Assembly: GCF_023701525.1 (NCBI RefSeq)
Contig: NZ_JAMQAW010000036.1
Span: 366,102 to 430,101, forward strand
DNA length: 64,000 bases
Direction: 5' to 3'
Source of the DNA: Streptomyces albipurpureus
GTDB taxonomy: Bacteria; Actinomycetota; Actinomycetes; Streptomycetales; Streptomycetaceae
Of the stretch, positions 27,100-28,370 are shown piece by piece. Under the pieces are notes generated by a model. The model worked only from the letters and a program-made list of their open reading frames with translations. It did no database searches and was not told the origin of the DNA. How positions within the stretch are numbered: position 1 is the first letter of the stretch; every line of letters begins with the position of its first letter. The position numbers and the translations under genes were made by a program.

Positions 27100-28050
27100 T
27101 CAGGCCCAGAGCTGCCCTTGGAGGAGTTCGATGGCCGCTTCCGTGGTCTCGGCCGTGTACACCCCCGTGGAGAGGTACTTCCAGCCGCCGTCGGCGACGA
27201 CGAACACGATGTCAGCGGACTCGCCGGCCTTGACGGCCTTCTTTCCGACGCCTATGGCCGCGTGGAGTGCGGCGCCGGTGGACACCCCGGCGAAGATGCC
27301 CTCCTGCTGGAGCAGCTCCCTGGTGCGGGTCACCGCGTCCGCCGAACCGACCGAGAAGCGGGTGGTGAGCACGGAGGCGTCATAGAGCTCGGGTACGAAA
27401 CCCTCGTCCAGATTCCGCAGTCCGTAGACCAGGTCGTCGTACCGTGGCTCGGCGGCCACGATACGGACGTCCGGCACACGCTCGCGGAGATAGCGGCCGA
27501 CGCCCATCAGGGTGCCGGTCGTGCCGAGGCCCGCCACGAAGTGGGTGATGGACGGCAGGTCGGTGAGGATCTCGGGTCCGGTGGTGGCGTAGTGCGCTCC
27601 GGCGTTCGCCGGGTTTCCGTACTGGTAGAGCATCACCCAGGAGGGGTTCTCGGCGGAGATCTCCTTGGCGACGCGAACGGCGGTGTTGGAGCCGCCCGCG
27701 GCGGGTGAGGAGATGATCTCCGCGCCCCACATGGTGAGCAGCTGGCGGCGCTCGGTACTGGTGTTCTCGGGCATGACGCAGACGATGCGGTAGCCCTTGA
27801 GCCGGGCGGCCATGGCCAGCGAGATACCGGTGTTGCCCGAGGTGGGTTCCAAGATGGTGCAGCCGGGGGTGAGCCTGCCGTCCTTCTCCGCCTGCTCGAT
27901 CATGAAGAGCGCTGGACGGTCCTTGATCGAACCGGTGGGGTTGCGGTCTTCGAGCTTGGCCCAGATGCGGACGTCGTCGGACGGCGACAGCCGCGGTAGG
28001 CGTACCAGAGGGGTGTTGCCGACCGCGGCGAGGGGAGAGTCGTAGCGCAT
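27100..28050 (-). CDS. cysM: CysM-type cysteine synthase (CysO-thiocarboxylate dependent)
   Basis: A 316-residue PLP enzyme. The PLP Lys is in [12 protein letters not shown] (about residue 44), the substrate loop is EPTSGNTG, and [11 protein letters not shown] binds phosphate. Coupling to a CysO gene identifies it as the actinobacterial CysM, which uses O-phosphoserine and the thiocarboxylate of CysO to make CysO-cysteine. The ATG at 28050 overlaps the cysO stop (TGATG), so the two are co-translated. The cysO gene is upstream and mec is encoded further upstream on the same strand. Confidence 0.95.
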
Positions 28051-28370
28051 CAGCGCGTTCCCGCGCGCCACCGGGCGGAACGGGGGTGCGCCGTGGTGGA
28101 TCCGCCGGCGACGGCCGGGAGGATCGTGACGCTGTCGCCGTCGCTGAGTTCGGTGGCGATGCCGGCGAGGAAGCGGACGTCTTCGTCATTGAGGTAGACG
28201 TTGACGAAGCGGCGTAGTTCACCGCCCTCGACAATGCGCTCCTTGATGCCGGTGTGGCGGGAGTCGAGGTCGGCGAAGAGTTCGGCGATGGTGCCTCCGC
28301 TGCCTTCGACGGCCTTCGCTCCGTCGGTGTACGTGCGGAGGATGGTCGGAATGCGGACCTCGATGGCCAT
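28050..28370 (-). CDS. cysO: CysO sulfur-carrier protein (MoaD/ThiS family) with C-terminal tail
   Basis: A 106-residue ubiquitin-fold sulfur carrier. The core ends in LPAVAGG (Gly89-Gly90), whose C-terminal Gly becomes a thiocarboxylate that donates sulfur to CysM. Unusually, 16 further residues ([16 protein letters not shown]) follow the GG before the stop codon, so the active terminus must first be exposed by a protease. The JAMM protease Mec, encoded nearby, is the likely candidate, because it cleaves after this GG in the known pathway. The gene overlaps cysM. Confidence 0.94.

What the first reader, a model, noticed from the sequence alone, without database searches (positions are those of the whole stretch)
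28050..28370. CysO carries 16 residues beyond the active Gly-Gly
The terminal glycine must be free to form the thiocarboxylate, but the gene runs on for [16 protein letters not shown] before its stop overlaps the cysM start. This predicts proteolytic maturation, most likely by Mec, making Mec a processing enzyme as well as a releasing enzyme. The tail may also just be the cost of the translational overlap.
Basis: partly seen in the sequence, partly recalled or inferred. Interest (0 to 1): 0.6.

Follow-up and report, generated by a model that had tools for sequence, protein, structure and literature searches.

The report
CysO cap, likely a repeat-element remnant
This Streptomyces sulfur-carrier protein is made with sixteen extra residues that hide its working end and must be trimmed off; nearly all relatives that were read carry some such cap, and in some of them a long cap matches a small scattered DNA repeat that sits in the gene just after the active glycines.

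Summary
In detail: window 28050-28370(-) encodes a 106-aa CysO with Gly-Gly at residues 89-90, then [16 protein letters not shown]; its TGA shares one base with the cysM ATG. The nearest relative has the same frame, so it is no sequencing error. The need for trimming is not new: capped carriers beside a JAMM protease, and loss of product without that protease, are published for S. platensis (PMC6006322). New here: (1) 182 of 183 distinct Streptomycetaceae CysO genes read carry 2-27 extra residues, while ThiS (30/30) and MoaD (30/30) end at Gly-Gly. (2) Overlap is not the sole cause: 69 of 152 two-residue caps have no overlapping cysM start. (3) Outside the family 30 of 65 end at Gly-Gly and 35 are capped. 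(4) Fifteen of 30 distinct long tails match a dispersed palindromic repeat present in 89 of 101 Streptomyces genomes, sometimes inside other genes. The window tail aligns with those tails better than 500 of 500 shuffles, but the repeat model does not hit it. Best reading: a disposable tail removed after Gly90, most likely by Mec, and probably a decayed repeat. Cleavage was not tested.

The parts
28050..28370 (-). cysO, ThiS-like sulfur carrier, 106 aa including a 16-aa cap
28101..28106 (-). codons of Gly89-Gly90, the presumed last residues of the mature protein; predicted cleavage after Gly90
   Evidence: invariant in 31 aligned CysO; last residue of the PDB chains 3dwg_C and 4n6e_B aligns here
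28053..28100 (-). 16-codon cap [16 protein letters not shown]; low-confidence, probably disordered in the model (pLDDT about 50)
28059..28100 (-). inner 42 nt of the cap, proposed decayed relative of the 54-nt palindromic-repeat insert of other cysO genes
   Evidence: 0 of 500 dinucleotide shuffles reach the score; the element model R1 itself gives no hit here
28048..28052 (-). TGATG, stop of cysO and start of cysM share one base
27100..28050 (-). cysM, PLP-dependent cysteine synthase, 316 aa; use of CysO thiocarboxylate is recalled from the mycobacterial system
   Evidence: PF00291
28735..29157 (-). mec, JAMM metallohydrolase, 140 aa, candidate trimming enzyme
   Evidence: PF14464; HSH-x7-SxxD motif visible in the sequence (motif recalled); relatives in PDB 2kks, 5lda
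28483..28599 (-). short ORF MVPHDVSEKTPSRLLLVARLHVDLCRLASAMCTARNAT between mec and cysO, possibly a cysteine-responsive leader peptide
   Evidence: seen directly; function recalled, not tested

Best explanation
CysO is translated as a short pro-protein. The ubiquitin-like part ends at Gly90; residues 91-106 are a flexible tail that blocks adenylation and thiocarboxylation until it is cut off after Gly90, most likely by the JAMM protease Mec encoded just upstream, which also releases cysteine from CysO-Cys at the same bond (recalled from mycobacteria). Because the tail is discarded its sequence is nearly free to vary. In 15 of the 183 distinct Streptomycetaceae cysO genes read, the segment between the Gly-Gly codons and the last codons matches a dispersed palindromic repeat; this window most likely holds a shortened, decayed version of it. 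Shown: the tail, its near-universality and near-specificity to CysO, its lability, the repeat family. Inferred: cleavage, Mec as the enzyme, and the descent of this tail.
For: Caps in 182 of 183 distinct Streptomycetaceae cysO read. Gly-Gly followed at once by TAA or TGA in 1 of 290 Streptomyces genomes by a pattern not chosen for tails. ThiS 30 of 30 and ThrC-linked carrier 23 of 30 loci read end at GG, the other 7 at GG-Cys; MoaD 30 of 30 end at GG. In the own genome only CysO of four ThiS-family proteins is capped, with one Prok-JAB protein above cut-off. mec found in all 32 genomes in which it lay outside the fetched flank. Tail pLDDT about 50, against 94-98 for residues 1-80 and 79 for 81-90. 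Codon positions 1/2/3 identical in .84/.75/.72 of the tail against .92/.95/.80 of the core (15 sequences). Repeat model R1 hits 15 of 30 distinct long tails at E 5e-8 to 5.5e-4. Window tail against repeat-derived tails: 0 of 500 shuffles as good. Published deletion of ptmS1.
Against: No cleavage was observed, and the paper passages I read show genetics, not cutting of PtmS2 by PtmS1. The published deletion of ptmS2 did not abolish product, so the capped carrier is not the only usable one. The own genome holds an uncapped, 58% identical paralog beside threonine synthase that might serve CysM. R1 does not hit the window tail or that of G094, and 15 of 30 distinct long tails, these two included, are not R1 hits at that level. 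R1 was built from copies found with the cysO insert as query, so its match to cysO is partly by construction. The alignment test leaves out the common last two codons, but of eight tails tried six gave weaker or no signal, without correction for eight tests. Most of the Streptomycetaceae loci were picked by similarity to a tailed query.
Confidence: 0.72

Rival explanations
1. The tail is only the cost of the cysO-cysM overlap: the coding end was extended to reach a coupled TGATG start.
For: TGATG here; by the aligned start 82 of 152 two-residue and 17 of 30 longer caps overlap cysM.
Against: 69 of 152 two-residue and 12 of 30 longer caps have no overlapping cysM start, upstream in-frame starts allowed. 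Outside the family 29 of 34 scorable capped genes do not overlap, and the 30 Gly-Gly-stop genes do without, 29 of them with cysM 1-55 nt behind the stop and one at 609 nt (in 2 of the 30 an upstream start could overlap).
Confidence: 0.15
2. The cap is removed by another protease, not Mec, or by several.
For: A tail modelled at low confidence is probably open to many proteases; no cleavage data for Mec on a tailed CysO were found.
Against: Among four carriers only CysO is regularly capped, and mec is its neighbour; JAMM proteases cut after Gly-Gly (recalled); the published ptmS1 deletion.
Confidence: 0.2
3. The capped CysO is a regulated reserve or inactive form, and the uncapped ThrC-linked paralog does the sulfur transfer in this genome.
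For: The paralog ends at GG in the own genome; the ptmS2 deletion did not abolish product in S. platensis.
Against: cysO is the gene overlapping cysM and its core is under purifying selection (pN/pS 0.20 against G094).
Confidence: 0.12
4. The tail has a conserved protein-level function, for instance as a degradation tag or binding peptide.
For: The 20-aa version recurs in many species.
Against: The codon-position pattern in the tail is not protein-like; pN/pS 0.63 in the tail against 0.20 in the core for window and G094, on only 5 changes in the tail; lengths range from 0 to 31.
Confidence: 0.08

Closest known systems
PtmS2/PtmS1 of Streptomyces platensis (capped carrier and JAMM protease, PMC6006322)
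   Same: Carrier capped after GG and clustered with a JAMM protease gene; four carriers and one JAMM protease reported in that genome, as counted here
   Different: Cap is two residues (MV), here 16; in S. platensis a second carrier is capped by Cys, whereas here the other three end at GG
QbsE/QbsD of quinolobactin biosynthesis
   Same: Protease QbsD exposes the C-terminal GG of a capped carrier (QbsD as cited in PMC6006322; QbsE and the original paper recalled, not read)
   Different: Siderophore pathway in Pseudomonas and a short cap (recalled)
Mycobacterium tuberculosis CysO-CysM-Mec
   Same: Same three proteins (recalled); CysO chain 3dwg_C aligns to residue 90 here
   Different: Mtb CysO ends at Gly-Gly, no cap (chain end, gene end recalled)
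Rickettsia palindromic elements (RPE) and REPs inside ORFs
   Same: Small palindromic repeats inserted in protein genes, RPEs in frame (PMC10969869 and PMC3733652, passages read)
   Different: Sequences were not compared; another host, and here at a protein end that is thought to be trimmed away

Membership tests
CysO / ThiS-like sulfur carrier | ThiS-family domain ending in Gly-Gly | tested here: met
   PF02597 residues 5-90; model pLDDT 94-98 for residues 1-80
CysO / ThiS-like sulfur carrier | gene neighbourhood with cysM and mec | tested here: met
CysO / ThiS-like sulfur carrier | Gly-Gly is the encoded C-terminus | tested here: not met
   16 residues follow; the capped subclass is defined by this
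Capped sulfur carrier with JAMM partner | residues after Gly-Gly and a clustered JAMM gene | tested here: met
Capped sulfur carrier with JAMM partner | protease removes the cap | not testable with these tools
   needs enzymology; genetics published for S. platensis only as far as read
Mec (JAMM) | Prok-JAB domain with HxH-x7-SxxD metal site | tested here: met
   PF14464, 105.7 bits; HSHTATEAYPSRTD in the sequence (motif recalled)
RPE/REP-like palindromic repeat | dispersed copies with compensating hairpin arms | tested here: met
   89 of 101 genomes. Hairpin on 33 matches: 97.8% of cells paired, 35 double-change cells against 7.1 in shuffles (0 of 500); weaker on two measures, pairs with double changes 4 against 2.9 (80 of 500) and further pair types 12 against 9.5 (29 of 500) (alignment fitted to the model)
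RPE/REP-like palindromic repeat | window tail matches the repeat model | tested here: not met
   no R1 match at 28050-28370 up to E 5; only indirect homology through cysO copies
RPE/REP-like palindromic repeat | mobility or a linked transposase | not tested
   no transposase was searched for

The most novel reading that the evidence does not exclude
Streptomyces carry an RPE-like family of palindromic repeats that insert in frame into protein genes, and the end of CysO is a safe landing site because a JAMM protease trims whatever follows Gly-Gly; the window tail is the decayed remains of such an insertion.
Probability: 0.45. Interest if true: 0.65.

Novelty: new variant of a known kind. Interest (0 to 1): 0.5.

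Why it matters
It turns an apparent oddity of one gene into a rule for a family: CysO is made as a pro-protein while ThiS and MoaD are not, which points to a second, testable duty for Mec. If right, it is also a clear case where a trimming enzyme frees a protein end from selection, so that repeats can settle in a core metabolic gene. Anyone expressing Streptomyces CysO for thiocarboxylate chemistry should end the gene at Gly90 or supply the protease.

Tried and rejected
Frameshift or assembly error: rejected, because G094 shares the frame. Strong local RNA structure in the tail: window tail z -0.16, G094 -0.70, 21 others between -4.1 and +1.4; not pursued. Gly-Gly codons as Shine-Dalgarno of cysM: GGA at Gly89 in 10 of 16 20-aa tails but in 3 of 152 two-residue caps; left open. 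Rfam: no family for the repeat in 14 loci searched (one irrelevant weak match below its gathering score). Tree placement of repeat-derived tails: at least 12 changes against 13-16 in 30 shuffles on a poorly resolved single-locus tree, so gains, losses and transfer cannot be told apart. The first fourfold comparison and the pooled pN/pS used 180 nt of core that include an indel; replaced. Overlap counts by the aligned start were checked for upstream in-frame starts, which moved one gene in each class. Literature on a Streptomyces repeat of this kind: none seen in the listings of searches, and two papers on palindromic repeats and MITEs do not hold the word Streptomyces in the main text; the library lacks most subscription journals.

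Full report
Observation. The window encodes, all on the minus strand, mec (28735-29157), a short leader-like ORF (28483-28599), cysO (28050-28370) and cysM (27100-28050). CysO has 106 codons. Its ThiS domain ends at Gly90, where the PDB chains 4n6e_B and 3dwg_C also end. Sixteen residues follow, and the stop shares one base with the cysM start. AlphaFold2 on a 31-sequence alignment gives mean pLDDT 94-98 for residues 1-80, 79 for 81-90 and about 50 for the tail. The nearest relative found, G094, has a 16-residue tail in the same frame, so this is not a sequencing error.

How common. In the first 90 Streptomyces loci read, none ended at Gly-Gly: 74 had exactly two more residues and 16 had 9-27. 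These loci were picked from the listed matches of 295 genomes by rank with a tailed query and by lack of a stop, so long tails are over-represented. A pattern for [IV]LPAVAGG followed at once by TAA or TGA matched 1 of 290 Streptomyces genomes, a set not chosen for tails. It would miss TAG stops, changed motifs and genomes without a detected cysO: G152 and G275 gave a single match at the level of the paralog. With 25 more loci and 80 of a named collection, again the best matches to the tailed query, there are 195 Streptomycetaceae loci, 183 distinct: 152 with two residues, 30 with 5-27, one without. Outside the family, 65 loci were read, each from another genome, out of 213 non-Streptomyces genomes with a match in the class sample of 296 (chosen from the listed matches for spread over families). 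Of these 30 end at Gly-Gly and 35 have 1-31 extra residues. On a FastTree of CysO core plus CysM (257 rows; 3 of 260 loci left out) capped and uncapped states need at least 15 changes, and at least 14 among the 63 rows outside Streptomycetaceae.

Nearly confined to CysO. The own genome has four ThiS-family proteins. ThiS ends AVQGG, the MoaD-like protein ends PFAGG, the threonine-synthase neighbour ends AVAGG; only CysO is capped. In Streptomyces samples, ThiS ends at GG in 30 of 30 loci read (58 of 61 genomes had a match, the best 30 loci were read) and MoaD in 30 of 30 (60 of 61 had a match). The threonine-synthase neighbour ends at GG in 23 of 30 and at GG-Cys in 7 (61 of 61 had a match). 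There is one Prok-JAB protein above the cut-off, Mec, and one sub-threshold match. In 31 of 115 Streptomyces loci and 1 of 65 others mec was not in the fetched flank; all 32 genomes have one, including G002, the only Streptomyces found with an uncapped CysO. Mec is therefore present with and without a cap and does not by itself predict one: outside Streptomycetaceae all 30 uncapped and 34 of 35 capped loci have mec in the flank.

Not the price of overlap alone. By the start aligned with the window's cysM ATG, 82 of 152 distinct two-residue caps overlap cysM and 70 do not; of 30 longer ones 17 do and 13 do not. Allowing upstream in-frame starts leaves 69 and 12 without overlap. Outside the family 5 of 34 scorable capped genes overlap and none of 30 uncapped ones by the aligned start. 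Overlap may have helped to fix a cap in some lineages, but caps exist without it.

Where long tails come from. The 20-residue tail (S/A-A-A/G-x-x-PRP...GRRxGM) recurs in scattered places of the tree beside two-residue relatives. In 15 distinct sequences its inner 54 nt keep fourfold sites better than the gene core (79% against 64%; 58 of 79 pairs), while codon positions 1, 2 and 3 are 84, 75 and 72% identical against 92, 95 and 80% in the core: conservation without a protein-coding pattern. Used as a query in 18 genomes, it finds the cysO copy in 8 and weaker matches elsewhere, most in G090. Twenty stretches with such matches were read. An expression written after seeing them found 18 copies in 17 of the 20, a variable hairpin followed by a G-rich stretch near GGGGTGGTGGTCGGGCGACGGGCGGGC; L405, L406 and L407 had none. 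A model of the 18, with no cysO copy in it, hits the tails of 15 of 30 distinct long-tailed cysO genes at E 5e-8 to 5.5e-4 (one of them over half the model), one more (L046) at 0.03, and no tail of the nine two-residue controls (46 loci searched: 31 long-tailed loci and 15 others). It finds copies in 89 of 101 Streptomyces genomes at E 0.01, 1 to 51 per genome with a match, with at most 54 candidates scored in each; the own genome has 2, best E 1.1e-5. The copies were first found with the cysO insert, so this match is partly circular; the independent parts are the hits of 55-70 bits in genomes not used for the model and the compensating changes in the hairpin. On 33 matches 97.8% of cells pair, with 35 double-change cells against 7.1 in shuffles (0 of 500) and a covariation score of 0.558 against at most 0.104 when partners are slid; the counts of pairs with double changes (4 against 2.9, 80 of 500) and of further pair types (12 against 9.5, 29 of 500) are not decisive (on an alignment fitted to the model). 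Ten of 30 copies lie within coding-like frames by a crude GC rule. One is inside a UvrD-type helicase, where the Pfam match runs through the insert, and another lies in a nuoJ-like gene outside the Pfam domain; nuoM-like and lhr-like names for two more are recalled from the sequence and were not tested.

The window's own tail. The model does not hit it or the G094 tail. Yet its inner 42 nt, without the common last two codons, align with eight repeat-derived cysO tails better than 500 of 500 dinucleotide shuffles and 500 of 500 codon shuffles (z 4.1 and 4.6); for G094 z is 3.4 (1 of 500 as good) and 4.4 (0 of 500). The alignment implies a loss of about 12 nt from the G-rich half. Of six other odd tails tried, two (L036, L037) give p near 0.01 and four no signal. 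Between the window and G094, pN/pS is 0.20 in the core (6 nonsynonymous, 10 synonymous) and 0.63 in the tail (3 and 2): too few changes for a firm claim, but in the direction of a free sequence.

Mechanism. A thiocarboxylate forms on the terminal carboxylate (established knowledge of ThiS/MoaD chemistry), so residues 91-106 must be removed. The closest experimental case is S. platensis: PtmS2 ends GG-MV, its gene is clustered with the JAMM gene ptmS1, and deletion of ptmS1 but not of ptmS2 abolishes thioplatensimycin and thioplatencin (PMC6006322, passages read). The authors removed the caps by cloning for their in vitro work, so cleavage by PtmS1 itself was not shown in the passages I read. 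The same bond, after the second Gly, is the one Mec cuts to free cysteine from CysO-Cys in mycobacteria (recalled), which makes a double duty economical. This remains inference for the window.

Assessment. The new part is the genus-wide cap, nearly confined to CysO, and the match of half of its distinct long forms to a dispersed palindromic repeat, comparable to Rickettsia palindromic elements (PMC10969869, passages read) in another host and at a protein end that is probably thrown away.

Noticed in passing
window 28483-28599 (-): 38-aa ORF with VDLCRLASAMC between mec and cysO; a similar ORF lies upstream of cysO in G002 (L122). Resembles actinobacterial cysteine attenuator leader peptides (recalled).
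   Followed up: no
L192, L195, L202, L203, L209, L212, L213: The threonine-synthase-linked carrier ends in GG-Cys in 7 of 30 Streptomyces loci, the same end as the CysO-Cys adduct that Mec cleaves (recalled).
   Followed up: partly
L119: CysO tail of a non-Streptomyces genome repeats its own end: [31 protein letters not shown]-stop, so the cap itself ends in Gly-Gly.
   Followed up: no
Streptomyces loci: In 83 of 96 two-residue caps the first residue after Gly-Gly is Met (ATG), followed by one codon and a stop; unexplained.
   Followed up: no
L328:855-912, L035:331-390, L043:462-520: Further matches to the palindromic repeat near cysO in three genomes with a tail of 9-20 residues.
   Followed up: no
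L438, L418, L420, L422: Palindromic repeat copies in open frames that look like a UvrD helicase (Pfam), nuoJ (Pfam), nuoM and lhr (recalled).
   Followed up: partly
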